Source: Myxococcus stipitatus DSM 14675
Lineage (GTDB): Bacteria > Myxococcota > Myxococcia > Myxococcales > Myxococcaceae
DNA length: 64,000 nucleotides
Assembly (NCBI RefSeq): GCF_000331735.1
Contig: NC_020126.1
Coordinates: forward strand, 4,092,001-4,156,000
Direction of reading: 5' to 3'
The stretch's first letter is position 1. Every line of letters begins with the position of its first letter. Below the pieces are notes generated by a model. It made no database searches and was not told the origin of the DNA. It worked only from the letters and a program-made list of their open reading frames with translations. Shown here piece by piece: positions 45,154 through 52,235 of this stretch. The position numbers and the translations under genes were made by a program.

Positions 45154-46755
45154 ATGGACACCGCGATTCGTGAAGTGGTGATTCTTGGAGGTGGGACGGC
45201 GGGTTGGATGACCGCTGCGTATCTCCAGAAGGTCTTCGAGGGCACCGTCCAGGTGACGCTCCTGGAGGCAGCCACCATCCCGAGGATCGGGGTGGGGGAA
45301 GCAACGGTTCCCAACCTGCAACGCGTCTTCTTCGACCGGCTGGGCATCCCCGAAGACGAGTGGATGCGCGAGTGCAACGCAGCCTTCAAGACCGCGGTGA
45401 AGTTCGTGAACTGGCGCAAGAAGGAGCCCGGCGCGCCGGACAATCATTTCTACCACGCGTTCGGACTCATCCCGAACGTGGACAACATCCCGCTGTCTCA
45501 CTACTGGGTGCTGCGCAACGAAGGCGGTGAGCGGGTCGACGAGGGGGTGGATTACGCCTGCTACCGCGAGCCGCCGATGATGGACGCGAAGCTGGCACCG
45601 CGCTTCCGGGATGGACGGCCCGCGGTCAACTACGCGTGGCACTTCGACGCGCAGTTGGTGGCGGACTACCTGCGGCGGCTGTCCACGGGGTGGGGCGTGA
45701 AGCACGTCGTGGACGAGCTGTCGTCCGTGGAGAAGACGCCCGACGGCCACATCAAGGCGCTCCACACCCGAGGTGGCCGCGTGCTGGAAGGCGACCTCTT
45801 CGTGGACTGCAGCGGCTTCCGGGGCCTGCTCATCAACCAGGCGATGGAAGAGCCGTTCCTGGACATGAGCGACCACCTGCTGTGCAACAGCGCGGTCGCC
45901 ACGGCCATCAATCACGATGACGCCCGCTTCGGAATCGAGCCCTACACGTCCGCGATTGCGTCGAACCACGGTTGGATGTGGAAGATTCCGATGCTGGGGC
46001 GCTTCGGGACGGGCTACGTCTATTCGAGCGAGTTCTGCTCGCAGGACGAGGCCATCCGAGAGTTCTCGGCGAAGTGGGGGCTGGACCCGGAGAAGACGGC
46101 GTTCAATCGCATCCGCTTCCGCGTGGGCCGCAACCGGCGCGCGTGGGTGAAGAACTGCGTGAGCATCGGGCTGGCGTCGTGCTTCGTGGAGCCGCTGGAG
46201 TCGACGGGCATCTACTTCATCACGGCGTCCATCTACCAGTTGGCGAAGCACTTCCCGGACAAGGGCTTCAACCCGGTGCTGATGGACCGTTTCAACCGAG
46301 AGGTTGAGATGATGTTCGATGACACGAGGGACTTCCTGCAGGCGCACTTCCTCACGTCGTCCCGGGACGACACGGCGTTCTGGCTGGCGAACAAGAACGA
46401 CTTGAAGCTCTCGGACGCGCTGAAGGACAAGCTGGAGACGTGGAAGACGGGCCTCACCGTCAACATGCCGGTGTCGGGCGAAGAGGCGTACTACGGGAAC
46501 TTCGAGACGGAGTTCCGGAACTTCTGGACGAACAGCAGCTACTACTGCGTGTTGTCTGGGATGGGGTGGATGCCGGAGCAACCCCTGACGACGCTGAAGT
46601 ACCGGCCGTCCTCCGTGGCCCACGCGGAGGAGGCCTTCCAGCGCGTCAAGCTCCAGCAGCAGGCCCTGCTCCAGGGCTTGCCCACCAACCATGAGTTCCT
46701 CCAGCGGCTGCACCGCCAGAACGGCATGGACCTGGCGCGTACCGGCACCCGGTGA
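45154..46755 (+). CDS. Flavin-dependent tryptophan-halogenase-type enzyme, copy 1
   Basis: 533 residues, full length. FAD-binding GGGTAGWM lies at 12-19; the catalytic lysine is Lys79 (AAFKTAV), the signature WMWKIP at 274-279, and Glu346 in FVEPLESTG; Lys79 and Glu346 have the same numbers as in PrnA. It should install chlorine or bromine on an aromatic substrate with FADH2 and a separate flavin reductase, which is not visible nearby. Substrate is unknown: the tryptophan label is by family. It is 96.8% identical (17 differences) to copy 2 at 50634-52235. A strong site GAGGAGGGGAC precedes the ATG. Confidence 0.92.
46045..46559 (+). repeat. Near-identical tract shared with halogenase 2 (copy A)
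   Basis: 515 bp matching 51525-52039 (offset 5480) with only two base differences, at 46375 and 46482; 46045-46374 is a perfect 330-bp match. The 5' part of the genes differs at many synonymous sites, which suggests recent gene conversion of this segment. Confidence 0.85.
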
Positions 46756-46766
46756 CAGTGGAACCC

Positions 46767-46796
46767 AGACAGGGGCTCGCTCCAGAGCCCCTGTCT
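46767..46796. terminator. Bidirectional hairpin between convergent genes
   Basis: AGACAGGGGCT and AGCCCCTGTCT form a perfect 11-bp stem with an 8-nt loop between the halogenase 1 stop and the end of the ABC binding protein gene. No strong U-run follows on either side, so strength is uncertain. Confidence 0.65.
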
Positions 46797-47854
46797 CAGT
46801 CCTCCAACAACCAGGGCGCGTACTTCCACGCCGTCTGGTGTTGCGCCTTGTCCGCGAACTGGATGTCCACGAACTCCTCGAAGGCCATCCGCCGGTTCAG
46901 CAGCCCGTGCTCCAGCATCAAGTCCTGTACCAGGTTGAAGTCCGCCTCACGCGGGGCCAGGGGGGTGTACTGCACCCGGTCGATGGGCTCCAACAGCGCG
47001 TGGCGCAGCAGCGCGGGCGGCTGGCTGTAGTAGTAGCGCCCGACGAACTCCGCCGCGTACTCGCGCTCCGCGCGCCCCTGGTCCAACCAGAGCCCCGAGC
47101 GCGCGATGCCATCCACCAGCACCTGCACCGCCTGCGGCCTCCGGCTGATGATGTCGTCGCGCACCACCAGGACACACGACATGTAGTCGGGCCAGTACTC
47201 CTTCGCGTGGAAGAGGACTCGGCCGAAGCCGCCCATCTCCGCCTGTGATGGATAGGGCTCTCCCATGGAGAAGCCGTCCACGGCTCCCGCCGCCAGGGCT
47301 CCCGCCACATCCGGAGGAGACATCTCCACCAGCTTCACCGACGACGGGGGCAGTCCGTGCTCCTTGAGCGCCTTGAGGATGATGAGCCGCTCGTCCGAGA
47401 ACCGGCTCGGGACCGCCACCGTCTTCCCGACCAGGTCAGGCACATGGCGCACGGGTCCGTTCTTGCTCACCACCACGGCGCTGCCGTAGCGATGCCCCAA
47501 GTAGACAATCTTGATGGGTACGCCCTGCGACCGCAGGGCCAAGGCCATGGGCGCCACCAAGAACCCCGCCTGCATCCGATTGGAGATCAGCGCCTCTTTG
47601 ATCTCCGGAAACCCCTGGAACATCTTCGGGATGAACAGCGTGTCGTCCAGGGAGTTGCGGGCGATGTAGTCAGTGACCGGACAGGCCAGGTGTCATGTGA
47701 CTGGGATGTAGGCGACGTTGAGCTTGCGCGTCTCCTCCGTCTTCCACTCGTTGCGCAGCGACGACCAGTCCAGGTTGAGCCACAGGTGCAGGCCGGAGAC
47801 CACCACCAGCCATGCGGTCACAGCCCATGCCACGCGCCTTGTCTGCCCTATCAT
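46796..47854 (-). CDS. ABC importer substrate-binding protein with in-frame TGA at codon 54
   Basis: 352 codons from ATG 47854, which has GGAGGTG before it and starts a membrane-anchor or signal segment (VAWAVTAWLVVVSGLHLWL). The mature part begins KLNVAYIPVT, then TGA (47693-47695), then HLACPVTDYIARNS in the same frame and on to the stop at 46796. Both sides are protein-like and of the NitT/TauT binding protein type (EALISNRMQAGFLVAPMALAL, DGFSMGEPYPSQAE). The TGA falls where relatives, as I recall them, carry Cys (CHLxCPVTD). It is either a nonsense mutation, a sequencing error, or a selenocysteine codon; the gene would be broken in the first two cases. Confidence 0.7.
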
Positions 47855-47879: not shown

Positions 47880-48674
47880 TCATTCCTCACGAAAGCCCCA
47901 GCGCACCCAACGCAAGGACTCCATCTTCCGGATTCCCGTGTCCAACAACAGGCCGATTCCCCCAATGAGCAACATCCCCGCCACCACCAGGTCGTAGCGT
48001 TTGCCCGCATTGCGAGCATCCACGATCATGTACCCGAGCCCCGAGTCGACGGCGATCATCTCCGCCGCCACCACCACCTGCCACGACACCCACAGCGCGA
48101 TGCGCAGCCCGACCAGCAACTGCGGCATCGCCGCGGGCAGCAGGACGCGGAAGAAGAGCCGGAGCGGCGAGAGCCCGAAGTTGCGACCCGCGTTCAGATA
48201 GATGGCGGGCACCGTGGCCATCGCCCCCGTGGTGTGCAGGGCCAGCGGCAGGCTCGCCGCGAGGAAGATGAGCGCGACGGCGGCCTTGTCTCCCACGCCA
48301 AAGAAGAGGATGGCGATGGGCACCCAGGCCAAGGGGCTGATGGGCCGAAGGAACTGCACCACCGGCCCGAGCGCGAGAGCCACCATGGGGTAGAGCCCCA
48401 TCCCCATCCCCAACACCAGCCCCACCAGCACGGCCAACCCGAAGCCAAGCCCCACGCGCAGCAGCGAGTCGGCGGCATACCGGAGCAACACCCCACTGCG
48501 CATCAGCTCCAGCATCCCGTCCAGCACTTGCATCGGATGTGGGAACACCTTCGTCCCCGTCGCGCGCACAGCCAGAACCCAGCCCGCCAGCAACAACAGC
48601 AGTGTCACCGCCGGAAGCAGGAGTGACTCGGCGGAGCGTCGCGCGAGGGGGCCCGGGTCAGATGTGGTGGGCAA
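47880..48674 (-). CDS. ABC importer permease (NitT/TauT type), first copy
   Basis: About 264 residues from TTG 48674, which overlaps the ATPase stop by 17 nt; the upstream in-frame codons to 48749 lie in the ATPase gene. Six hydrophobic helices are visible and the coupling-helix EAA motif is partly seen in LRLFFRVLLPAAMPQLLVGLRIAL. The end ARNAGKRYDLVVAGMLLIGGIGLLLDTGIRKME is family-typical. With the second permease it would form the membrane channel of the importer. The next gene, the binding protein, is 25 nt downstream. Confidence 0.85.
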   Translation of the reverse strand: MPTTSDPGPLARRSAESLLLPAVTLLLLLAGWVLAVRATGTKVFPHPMQVLDGMLELMRSGVLLRYAADSLLRVGLGFGLAVLVGLVLGMGMGLYPMVALALGPVVQFLRPISPLAWVPIAILFFGVGDKAAVALIFLAASLPLALHTTGAMATVPAIYLNAGRNFGLSPLRLFFRVLLPAAMPQLLVGLRIALWVSWQVVVAAEMIAVDSGLGYMIVDARNAGKRYDLVVAGMLLIGGIGLLLDTGIRKMESLRWVRWGFREE

Positions 48675-49455
48675 GGCCAATCTCCCCCAACAGGCTGTCC
48701 CGCAGCTCCAGGTAGCGCGCGGAGCTGATGTCCCTGGGGCGCGGAACATCCACCTCCACGATGCGCCGCACCTTCCCGGGCTTCGCCGACATCACCACCA
48801 CCCGGTCCGCCAGCTGCAAAGCCTCCTCGATGTCGTGCGTGACGAAGAGCACCGTCTTGCGCTCCGCCTCCCACAAGCGCAGGAGCTCTGATCGCATCGA
48901 ATGCCGGGTGATGGAGTCGAGCGCCCCGAAGGGCTCATCCAGGTAGAGCACCTCGGGGTTCGCCGCCAGCGCTCGAGCGACCTCCACGCGCTGCTTCATC
49001 CCTCCCGACAGCTCGTGTGGCCAGGCCTGCTCGAAGCCTGTCAGCCCCACCATCTTCACGTAGTGCGCCACCCGCTCGCGCCGCTGTGCCTCGGTCAGCT
49101 TGAACAGCCCGAACGCGATGTTCCCCTCCACCGTCAGCCAGGGGAAGACACCTCGCTCCTGGAAGACGAAGATGCGGCGCGGGTCCGGTCCGCTCACCCG
49201 CTCTCCGCGAAAATGCACCGCGCCGGAGGTGGGCTCGAGGAATCCTCCCACGACGTTGAGCAGCGTGGACTTGCCGCAGCCGGAGGGGCCCAACAGGCAG
49301 ACGAACTCGCCCTCGTACACATCCAGGTTCACCCGCTCCAACACGGTCAGCTCTCGCGTGGGCGTGTTGAAGCGGACGTGGATGTCGCGAATGCTCAGGG
49401 CCACCTGGCGCGCAGACGGCGGTGCCACGGGGACGAGGACGTTGGCGGGCTTCAC
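48658..49455 (-). CDS. ABC importer ATPase (NitT/TauT type)
   Basis: 265 residues with all motifs: Walker A GPSGCGKST (56-64), Q-loop FVFQERGVFPW, signature LSGGMKQR, Walker B VLYLDEPFGALD and switch VTHD. The protein powers uptake of small anions such as nitrate, sulfonates or related compounds. It ends where the first permease begins and lies one base after the second permease's stop. The arrangement permease-ATPase-permease-binding protein forms one minus-strand operon. Confidence 0.93.
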   Translation of the reverse strand: MKPANVLVPVAPPSARQVALSIRDIHVRFNTPTRELTVLERVNLDVYEGEFVCLLGPSGCGKSTLLNVVGGFLEPTSGAVHFRGERVSGPDPRRIFVFQERGVFPWLTVEGNIAFGLFKLTEAQRRERVAHYVKMVGLTGFEQAWPHELSGGMKQRVEVARALAANPEVLYLDEPFGALDSITRHSMRSELLRLWEAERKTVLFVTHDIEEALQLADRVVVMSAKPGKVRRIVEVDVPRPRDISSARYLELRDSLLGEIGLAHHI

Positions 49456-50633: not shown

Positions 50634-52235
50634 ATGGACACCGCGATTCGTGAAGTGGTGATTCTCGGGGGTGGGACGGCGGGGTGGATGACGGCGGCGT
50701 ACCTTCAGAAGGTCTTCGAGGGGACCGTCCAGGTGACGCTCCTGGAGGCAGCCACCATTCCGCGGATTGGGGTGGGGGAGGCGACGGTCCCCAATCTGCA
50801 ACGCGTCTTCTTCGACCGGCTGGGCATCCCCGAGAACGAGTGGATGCGCGAGTGCAACGCCGCGTTCAAGACGGCGGTGAAGTTCGTCAACTGGCGCAAG
50901 AAGGAGCCGGGGGCGCCGGACAATCACTTCTACCACGCGTTCGGGCTCATCCCGAACGTGGACAACATCCCCCTGTCTCACTACTGGGTGCTGCGCAACG
51001 AGGGGCGGGCAACGCCTGACGAGCAGGTGGATTACGCGTGCTATCGCGAGCCGCCGATGATGGACGCGAAGCTGGCGCCGCGCTTCCGGGATGGACGGCC
51101 CGCGGTGAACTACGCGTGGCACTTCGACGCGCAGTTGGTGGCGGACTACCTGAGGAGGCTCTCGACAGGGTGGGGCGTGAAGCACGTGGTGGACGAGCTG
51201 GCGTCCGTGGAGAAGACGCCGGACGGACACATCAAGGCGCTGCACACGAAGGGAGGTCGGGTGTTGGGAGGAGACCTCTTCGTGGATTGCAGCGGCTTCC
51301 GGGGCCTGCTCATCAACCAGGCGATGGAAGAGCCCTTCCTGGACATGAGCGACCACCTGCTGTGCAACAGCGCGGTGGCGACAGCCATCGAGCATGACGA
51401 CGCGAAGCACGGCATCGAGCCGTACACGTCGGCGATAGCGTCGAAGCACGGGTGGATGTGGAAGATTCCGATGCTGGGGCGCTTCGGGACGGGCTACGTG
51501 TACTCGAGCGAGTTCTGCTCGCAAGACGAGGCCATCCGAGAGTTCTCGGCGAAGTGGGGGCTGGACCCGGAGAAGACGGCGTTCAATCGCATCCGCTTCC
51601 GCGTGGGCCGCAACCGGCGCGCGTGGGTGAAGAACTGCGTGAGCATCGGGCTGGCGTCGTGCTTCGTGGAGCCGCTGGAGTCGACGGGCATCTACTTCAT
51701 CACGGCGTCCATCTACCAGTTGGCGAAGCACTTCCCGGACAAGGGCTTCAACCCGGTGCTGATGGACCGTTTCAACCGAGAGGTTGAGATGATGTTCGAT
51801 GACACGAGGGACTTCCTGCAGGCGCACTTCCTCACGTCGTCCCGGGACGACACGCCGTTCTGGCTGGCGAACAAGAACGACTTGAAGCTCTCGGACGCGC
51901 TGAAGGACAAGCTGGAGACGTGGAAGACGGGCCTCACCGTCAACATGCCGGTGTCGGGCGAGGAGGCGTACTACGGGAACTTCGAGACGGAGTTCCGGAA
52001 CTTCTGGACGAACAGCAGCTACTACTGCGTGTTGTCTGGAATGGGGTGGATGCCGGAGCAGCCGTTGACGACGCTGAAGTACCGGCCGTCGTCGGTGGCG
52101 CACGCGGAGGAGGCGTTCCAGCGCGTGAAGCTCCAGCAGCAGGCGTTGCTCCAGGGCCTGCCCACCAACCACGAGTTCCTCCAGCGGTTGCACCGCAAGA
52201 ACGGCATGGACCTGGCCGCGACGGGCACGGGGTGA
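50634..52235 (+). CDS. Flavin-dependent tryptophan-halogenase-type enzyme, copy 2
   Basis: 533 residues, full length, with GGGTAGWM (12-19), Lys79, WMWKIP (274-279) and Glu346 all intact, so it should be active. Seventeen residues differ from copy 1; five of them cluster in one loop at about residues 125-131 (RATPDEQ instead of GERVDEG), a surface likely to touch the substrate or flavin exchange path. Both copies run rightward with the ABC importer between them on the other strand. No flavin reductase or scaffold synthase gene is in the window next to them. Substrate unknown. Confidence 0.92.
51525..52039 (+). repeat. Near-identical tract shared with halogenase 1 (copy B)
   Basis: Partner of 46045-46559; two base differences in 515 bp, at 51855 and 51962. 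See that entry for the contrast with the diverged 5' part. Confidence 0.85.

What the first reader, a model, noticed from the sequence alone, without database searches (positions are those of the whole stretch)
46796..47854. In-frame TGA at codon 54 of an ABC binding protein, at a likely Cys position
The frame from ATG 47854 continues through TGA (47693-47695) into HLACPVTDY with protein-like sequence on both sides and no frame change. Relatives, as I recall them, have Cys here (CHLxCPVTD). TGA in place of Cys next to a second Cys four residues later is the pattern of selenoproteins. It could also be a single-base nonsense mutation from TGC/TGT or a sequencing error. A GGTC stretch lies about 14 nt after the TGA, but the surrounding hairpin is weak.
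Basis: partly seen in the sequence, partly recalled or inferred. Interest (0 to 1): 0.7.

Follow-up and report, generated by a model that had tools for sequence, protein, structure and literature searches.

The report
Selenium-containing ABC transporter binding protein
A soil bacterium's transporter protein carries an in-frame stop codon that almost certainly encodes the rare amino acid selenocysteine, and the same codon sits at the same place in relatives from two bacterial phyla, which points to an unlisted family of selenium proteins that may grip a metal cargo through selenium.

Summary
An in-frame TGA (47693-47695, minus strand) is codon 54 of an otherwise open 352-codon gene for an NMT1/SsuA-type ABC binding protein. 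It is not an error or a nonsense mutation. Of 44 homologues in the tree, from Myxococcota and Acidobacteriota, 17 have TGA at this codon, 25 Cys and 2 Thr. Purifying selection acts on both sides. The genome has selA, selB, selD, tRNA-Sec and a second TGA gene (SelW-like, CGSU); no other tRNA found reads UGA. Selenocysteine is by far the best reading. The weak point is the SECIS: a textbook hairpin 21 nt after the UGA exists only in a distant clade of the family (clear in two members, imperfect in a third); in this gene the expected place is among the least structured of the ORF. The Sec lies in PVT-U-HLACP at the predicted ligand site and aligns with a His of a S. aureus relative solved with zinc bound. 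In one clade of Cys-type relatives a small heavy-metal-associated-like protein gene follows the binding-protein gene. I infer a soft-metal or metal-complex importer. The family fails the SaoX model and is absent from a 2026 table of 119 prokaryotic selenoprotein families.

The parts
46796..47854 (-). Gene of the ABC-transporter substrate-binding protein (352 residues, N-terminal membrane anchor, Sec at residue 54); final stop TGA at 46796-46798
   Evidence: Frame open except codon 54; PF13379 NMT1_2 93.3 bits and PF09084 60.2 bits; AlphaFold2 mean pLDDT 86.4 with helix 2-27 then a binding-protein fold
47693..47695 (-). In-frame TGA, proposed selenocysteine codon (residue 54)
   Evidence: TGA at this codon in 17 of the 44 homologues in the tree; Cys in 25, Thr in 2
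47681..47683 (-). TGT codon of Cys58, partner of Sec54 in UHLAC
   Evidence: C58 is invariant in the 22-row alignment and kept in the two Thr54 homologues L138 and L139
47861..47865 (-). GGAGG, ribosome-binding-like sequence six bases before ATG 47854
   Evidence: read directly
47880..48749 (-). ABC permease 2 (the ORF's true start may lie further downstream)
   Evidence: PF00528 59 bits; conserved order in relatives
48658..49455 (-). ABC ATP-binding protein
   Evidence: PF00005 110 bits; 89.8-95.1% identical in L051-L053, 60-71% in L054-L061
49457..50266 (-). ABC permease 1, first gene of the operon
   Evidence: PF00528 64.6 bits; conserved order in relatives

Best explanation
The gene encodes a membrane-anchored substrate-binding protein of an ABC importer in which UGA codon 54 is read as selenocysteine by the host's SelA/SelB/SelD/tRNA-Sec machinery. 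The Sec (PVT-Sec-His-Leu-Ala-Cys58-Pro) sits in the loop between the first strand and first helix of the mature domain, a ligand-binding loop in this fold. I infer that it, together with Cys58 and His121, Glu199 and Cys227, holds the cargo, most likely a soft metal or metal-containing compound; a Sec54-Cys58 redox pair is the alternative. Shown: conservation of the TGA, Sec/Cys interchange on the tree, presence of the machinery, selection on both sides. Inferred: Sec insertion itself, the ligand role and the ligand.
For: TGA at the same codon in 11 of the 15 Myxococcota genomes with a homologue (195 searched; 3 have Cys, 1 Asp), in 5 of 21 matches from 20 of 396 Acidobacteriota genomes (14 Cys, 2 Thr), and in a Myxococcales MAG (L014). 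Tree of 44 proteins: the Sec label needs 6 changes by parsimony, at least 3 forced by well-supported branches, so Sec and Cys interchange. dN/dS against L037-L039 is 0.025-0.065 after and 0.115-0.2 before the TGA. selA 470 bits, selB 293 bits, 316 with its C-terminal part, selD 386 bits, tRNA-Sec 66 bits. A SelW-like CGSU gene in the same genome also has an in-frame TGA. tRNA-Sec is the only UCA-anticodon tRNA ARAGORN finds at 74 of the 75 tRNA matches and at the tRNA-Sec locus (one match, at 547404, was not called and its anticodon was not read). SelA present in 35 of 35 Myxococcota genomes tested, among them the 11 Sec ones. Distant clade: 7-bp hairpin GGUCACC-AGUUG-GGUGACC 21 nt after the UGA in L136 and L137. 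Metal: best fold match 3un6, titled as zinc-bound, Z 33.8; Sec54 aligns with its His, and H121, E199, C227 with H, E, C. In a 10-row acidobacterial clade of Cys members an HMA-like small protein gene with a CxxC motif follows the binding-protein gene.
Against: No convincing SECIS in this gene: best model-like hairpin -4.4 kcal/mol, rank 213 of 220 positions from the TGA downstream, 322 of 328 over the gene; the SelW-like control gives -16.4, rank 5 of 65, in the same scan. RNAalifold on Sec members shows no conserved structure (z -0.4 to -1.4); the Cys members score no worse (z -1.8 to -2.6). No Rfam match. No protein-level evidence. Three Myxococcota genomes (G073, G074, G146) and three acidobacterial ones (G195-G197) have SelA yet Cys, so Sec is not needed by the family. 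SelA was not sought in the genomes of L128, L129, L135-L137. The HMA-like gene was not found beside any Sec-type member and exceeds Pfam's cut-off in only 1 of 9 copies scanned. Model confidence around residue 54 is only moderate (pLDDT 71 for residues 51-60).
Confidence: 0.9

Rival explanations
1. A nonsense mutation or sequencing error in a Cys codon; the gene is a pseudogene or mis-sequenced.
For: TGA is one substitution from TGC/TGT, and orthologues with Cys exist.
Against: TGA at this codon in 17 of 44 tree members, spread over two phyla; no other stop in the aligned frames of those 17; strong purifying selection downstream; the other operon genes are intact.
Confidence: 0.01
2. UGA is decoded, but as Cys, Trp or another ordinary amino acid, by a suppressor tRNA or by leaky readthrough, without selenium.
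For: No recognisable SECIS in this gene.
Against: The only UCA-anticodon tRNA found is tRNA-Sec (one of 75 matches not called). UGA occurs where relatives have Cys, the usual Sec/Cys pairing. Distant members have a textbook SECIS-like hairpin.
Confidence: 0.06
3. Termination at UGA is used; the functional protein starts at an internal ATG (47623, 275 residues) without the anchor and first strand.
For: A 275-residue ORF starts at ATG 47623.
Against: The upstream 53 codons are under purifying selection between close relatives (dN/dS 0.115-0.2; 0.5-0.9 against distant ones). P51, V52, T53, H55, L56, C58, P59 and V60 are invariant in the 22-row alignment. The short form would lack the anchor and the first strand of the fold.
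Confidence: 0.03
4. It is a selenoprotein, but Sec54 and Cys58 form a redox or covalent-capture pair rather than metal ligands.
For: Sec near a Cys is typical of redox selenoproteins in the catalogue; the site should face the oxidising periplasm.
Against: The spacing is UxxxC, not UxxC; the fold is a binding protein, not thioredoxin-like; in L138 and L139 residue 54 is Thr while C58 stays; the closest structure is titled zinc-bound; HMA-like neighbour gene in one clade.
Confidence: 0.24

Closest known systems
SaoX (NF040735), Sec-containing ABC substrate-binding subunit
   Same: ABC substrate-binding protein of related sequence with a Sec; catalogued in PMC13188914 Table 1 with motif UxP; SaoP and SaoA models also score the operon's permeases and ATPase, below their cut-offs
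   Different: Scores only 61.6 bits against a cut-off of 300; five other Sec members 46-69 bits; motif here is UHLxCP; no MerB-like or thioredoxin-like match among the 39 neighbouring ORFs scanned
Staphylococcus aureus ABC binding protein 3un6, solved with zinc
   Same: Nearest solved structure by sequence (136.6 bits) and by fold (Z 33.8, rmsd 2.4 over 286 residues); same H, E, C at positions 121, 199, 227
   Different: 22% identity; His in place of Sec54, no Cys58; ligand in life not established here
SsuA/TauA/NrtA-type binding proteins (TIGR01728, PF13379)
   Same: Family-level match: PF13379 93 bits, TIGR01728 115.8 bits, below its cut-off of 163.5; permeases and ATPase score with taurine, nitrate and sulfonate models, below cut-offs
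   Different: Those proteins bind oxyanions or sulfonates and are not known to me to carry Sec or the CHLxCP motif (recalled)
SelW-like selenoproteins (PF10262)
   Same: Second in-frame-TGA gene of the same genome, motif CGSU
   Different: Unrelated protein; used here only as a control

Membership tests
Selenoprotein | In-frame UGA conserved and paired with Cys in homologues | tested here: met
   17 Sec, 25 Cys, 2 Thr of 44 rows
Selenoprotein | selA, selB, selC and selD in the genome | tested here: met
   selA also in 35 of 35 Myxococcota genomes tested and in the genome of L014; not tested in the 5 Acidobacteriota Sec genomes
[quoted passage not shown]
   Best -4.4 in the window gene with spacing 13-37 nt allowed, rank 213 of 220. 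7 of 17 Sec members reach -7.5 (L041, L042, L043, L050, L135, L136, L137), but only L136 ranks in its gene's top 5%; background means of -8 to -14 make the threshold weak in these genes. The source says a subset of selenoprotein genes fails the model. SelW-like control: -16.4, rank 5 of 65
Selenoprotein | Selenium present in the protein | not testable with these tools
   needs mass spectrometry or 75Se labelling
ABC substrate-binding protein, NMT1/SsuA type | Family profile and fold | tested here: met
   PF13379 93.3 bits against 24.7; fold matches NrtA, CmpA, TauA and SsuA structures with Z 24.6-32
ABC substrate-binding protein, NMT1/SsuA type | Permease and ATPase genes alongside | tested here: met
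   permease 1, ATPase, permease 2 and binding protein in the window and in 16 of 19 loci; L062-L064 show one permease. Of nine further acidobacterial loci, four have two permeases and five one
SaoX equivalog | NF040735 score over cut-off | tested here: not met
   61.6 against 300 bits; 46-69 bits for five other Sec members
SaoX equivalog | UxP Sec motif | tested here: not met
   motif here is UHLACP; the catalogue gives UxP
Zinc-binding relative 3un6 | Same metal ligands | tested here: inconclusive
   H121, E199 and C227 positions shared, Sec aligns with His; I could not read which residues bind zinc in 3un6

The most novel reading that the evidence does not exclude
A family of ABC importers found in two phyla uses selenocysteine as a metal-cargo ligand, and in Myxococcus SelB inserts Sec at this UGA without a recognisable downstream SECIS hairpin, although distant members still carry a textbook one. 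This would be a natural case of SECIS-poor or non-canonical Sec insertion.
Probability: 0.25. Interest if true: 0.8.

Novelty: new variant of a known kind. Interest (0 to 1): 0.68.

Why it matters
It adds an apparently unlisted Sec-containing binding-protein family in bacteria for which my search listings showed no described selenoprotein. Gene calling that treats UGA as a stop would cut the gene. It suggests that selenium can serve transport, by gripping cargo, as well as redox catalysis. The contrast between a textbook SECIS in distant members and none visible in Myxococcus makes the minimum requirement for bacterial Sec insertion directly testable.

Tried and rejected
A SECIS in the window gene was sought by free folding, a scan of the published bacterial model with per-position background, RNAalifold with column shuffles, and Rfam; none convinced. 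Synonymous-site identity after the TGA in the Sec group was 0.667, 0.715 and 0.437 for codons +1 to +6, +7 to +12 and +13 to +18, against 0.638 for the whole downstream part, so I do not use it.

Flanking tryptophan halogenases were considered as functional partners. Among the 24 loci compared, homologues of the window's halogenases occur beside the operon in the window's clade and in L007; weakly Trp-halogenase-like FAD proteins occur near L057 and L006 (28 and 33 bits), with L058 clustering with L057. I judge the link unproven. FG-GAP/UnbV-ASPIC genes occur near L003 and L142, not followed.

A plasmid origin was tested: no match in 72,556 plasmid records at E 1e-20. No Sec formate dehydrogenase was found (no match over the cut-off and no stop inside the matches). 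L049 (G035) was first listed with a TGA, but that one aligns at query residue 341, near the end; at position 54 it has Asp, so I do not count it as Sec. L015 (Cys; gene in two pieces; no SelA match in its MAG) and L049 were left out of the tree. L009-L011 and L121 were dropped there as duplicates of G073, G127, G126 and G195. Some forks of the tree are open (L128 and L129 are not placed firmly) and L048 has a long branch.

The SaoX paper and a later one by the same group (PMC9879109, PMC12013261) were not held, so the comparison rests on the NCBIfam models and on the review PMC13188914 (abstract, section 5, parts 1 and 2 of section 7 with Table 1, and passages; part 3 of section 7 seen in one passage only). 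For PMC12013277 I only ran a term search, which found none of five terms. Other papers were seen as search listings only.

Full report
Observation. On the minus strand, the frame starting at ATG 47854 runs to the final TGA at 46796-46798 with a single internal TGA at 47693-47695, codon 54. A GGAGG lies six bases before the ATG. The product is an ABC substrate-binding protein of the NMT1/SsuA kind (PF13379, 93.3 bits). It is the last gene of a tight operon: permease 1, ATPase, permease 2, binding protein. The other three genes are open.

Origin. The window lies in a complete 10,350,586-base genome. A genome of the same genus code (G127) holds a contig of the same length as one of Myxococcus sp. 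RHSTA-1-4 (L010), so I take the window to be from Myxococcus. The genome size suggests M. stipitatus to me from memory only.

Not an error, not a pseudogene. Of 195 Myxococcota genomes searched, 15 have a homologue at E 1e-30 or better. At the codon aligned to residue 54, 11 have TGA (identity 43-100%), 3 have Cys and 1 has Asp. Of 396 Acidobacteriota genomes, 20 have a homologue, with 21 matches: 5 TGA, 14 Cys, 2 Thr. Among 14 loci of the named-genome scan, 3 have TGA and 11 Cys; four of these duplicate genomes just counted. Against the three nearest relatives, dN/dS is 0.025-0.065 after the TGA and 0.115-0.2 before it, so both sides look translated and under selection. Upstream values against four more distant relatives rise to 0.5-0.9, as expected of a membrane anchor and linker.

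Sec and Cys interchange. On a maximum-likelihood tree of 44 members (17 Sec, 25 Cys, 2 Thr; the Sec residue entered as X), the Sec label needs 6 changes, with at least 3 forced by well-supported branches. In the 13-row myxobacterial group that holds the window, 11 are Sec and the two Citreicoccus-type genomes are Cys although they have SelA. G146, a longer-branched member of the same family, is also Cys with SelA.

Machinery. The genome has SelA (470 bits), SelB (293 bits, 316 with its C-terminal part), SelD (386 bits) and tRNA-Sec (66 bits over a 47-bit cut-off). It also has a SelW-like gene with an in-frame TGA in a CGSU motif. SelA is present in 35 of 35 Myxococcota genomes tested out of the 195. 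In five further genomes SelA was found in four: that of the Sec-type L014 and three Cys-type ones; the one without it (L015) has Cys. ARAGORN calls a tRNA at 74 of the 75 tRNA matches; the only UCA anticodon is that of tRNA-Sec. The tally of 117 is not a gene count because loci overlap. No Sec formate dehydrogenase was found.

SECIS: the weak point. The published bacterial model (PMC13188914, section 5) asks for an apical loop with an early G, 16-37 nt after the UGA, at -7.5 kcal/mol or lower. In the window gene the best such hairpin reaches -4.4, rank 213 of 220 positions from the TGA downstream and 322 of 328 over the gene, so the site is unusually unstructured. The SelW-like control gives -16.4, rank 5 of 65, in the same scan. 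RNAalifold on Sec members finds no conserved structure, and Cys members score no worse; Rfam gives no match. Seven of 17 Sec members reach -7.5, but these genes reach it by chance at most positions. In a distant clade the picture is different: L136 and L137 have the stem GGUCACC/GGUGACC with loop AGUUG, 21 nt after the UGA (-17.4, rank 10 of 220; -15.7, rank 48 of 220), and L050 has the same hairpin with one mismatch (-9.6, rank 150 of 220). The loop fits the model (G second, followed by U). The family therefore contains members that look textbook, while the Myxococcus members either use a cryptic or non-canonical signal or need little of one.

Site. P51, V52, T53, residue 54, H55, L56, C58, P59 and V60 are invariant in the 22-row alignment; in five further acidobacterial members (L123-L127) H55 is Gln. 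The AlphaFold2 model (Cys for Sec, mean pLDDT 86.4, but 71 for residues 51-60) is a membrane helix followed by a binding-protein fold; residue 54 lies in the loop after strand 45-49, and Cys58 at the start of helix 57-68. Nearest by sequence and fold is the S. aureus binding protein 3un6, titled as zinc-bound (Z 33.8). Sec54 aligns with its His, and His121, Glu199 and Cys227 (invariant in the 22 rows) align with His, Glu and Cys. Other matches include NrtA, CmpA, TauA and SsuA, whose ligands sit between the lobes (established knowledge).

A metal neighbour. In the acidobacterial clade of ten Cys-type rows (L003, L004, L006, L007, L016, L123-L127; support 100/99) a small gene follows the binding-protein gene on the same strand (in L007 behind a second, partial copy; in L016 the frame has a stop). 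It starts with a twin-arginine-like M-x-RR-x-F and carries (T/S)C(I/V)TCA. Of nine copies scanned, eight match Pfam's heavy-metal-associated domain PF00403 at E 0.1 or better (14.4-26.5 bits), one of them over the curated cut-off of 24.8; L125 shows no HMA match. No homologue was found in the window or in the Sec-type loci. This neighbour, with the zinc-bound relative and the soft Sec/Cys ligands, is why I infer a soft-metal or metal-compound cargo. A redox or covalent-capture pair remains the main alternative. No other neighbour recurs widely.

Known or new. A 2026 review (PMC13188914; abstract, section 5 and parts 1-2 of section 7 read) lists 119 Sec families. The transporter binding subunits I saw in its Table 1 are SaoX (UxP), SaoB (CUxxT) and BtuF (CxxU). 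This family scores 46-69 bits against the SaoX cut-off of 300 and has another motif, so it is not SaoX, though it may work in a similar kind of system. Paper searches with ABC transporter, Sao, NMT1, Myxococcus, myxobacteria or Acidobacteria terms listed no description of it; the library lacks most subscription papers and two by the group that described SaoX. RefSeq annotation was not checked.

Verdict. It appears to be an unlisted Sec family of ABC binding proteins found in two phyla, probably for a metal cargo, with an unexplained lack of a visible SECIS in Myxococcus.

Noticed in passing
45154-46755 (+) and 50634-52235 (+): Two tryptophan halogenases, 93% identical over 1602 bases, flank the ABC operon in the same orientation with the operon reversed between them; the first matches the Thal/RebH class. 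The same arrangement is seen in L051 and L052; in L053 one copy is split into two pieces.
   Followed up: partly
L007:6751-9390: In an acidobacterial MAG a tryptophan halogenase follows the binding-protein gene, with a second partial copy of that gene and then the HMA-like gene behind it: the halogenase seems to have been inserted with a local duplication.
   Followed up: partly
L069 (genome 9474889-9475095, minus): SelW-like gene (PF10262) with in-frame TGA in a CGSU motif: a second candidate selenoprotein of this genome.
   Followed up: partly
L011: Record titled Comamonas sp. KCTC 72670 holds a contig of the same length as one in G126, a genome placed in the window's own genus, so the title looks wrong.
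   Followed up: no
L138, L139: Homologues with Thr at residue 54 but Cys58 kept (PVITNLACPL); one genome (G548) has both this form and a Sec form.
   Followed up: no
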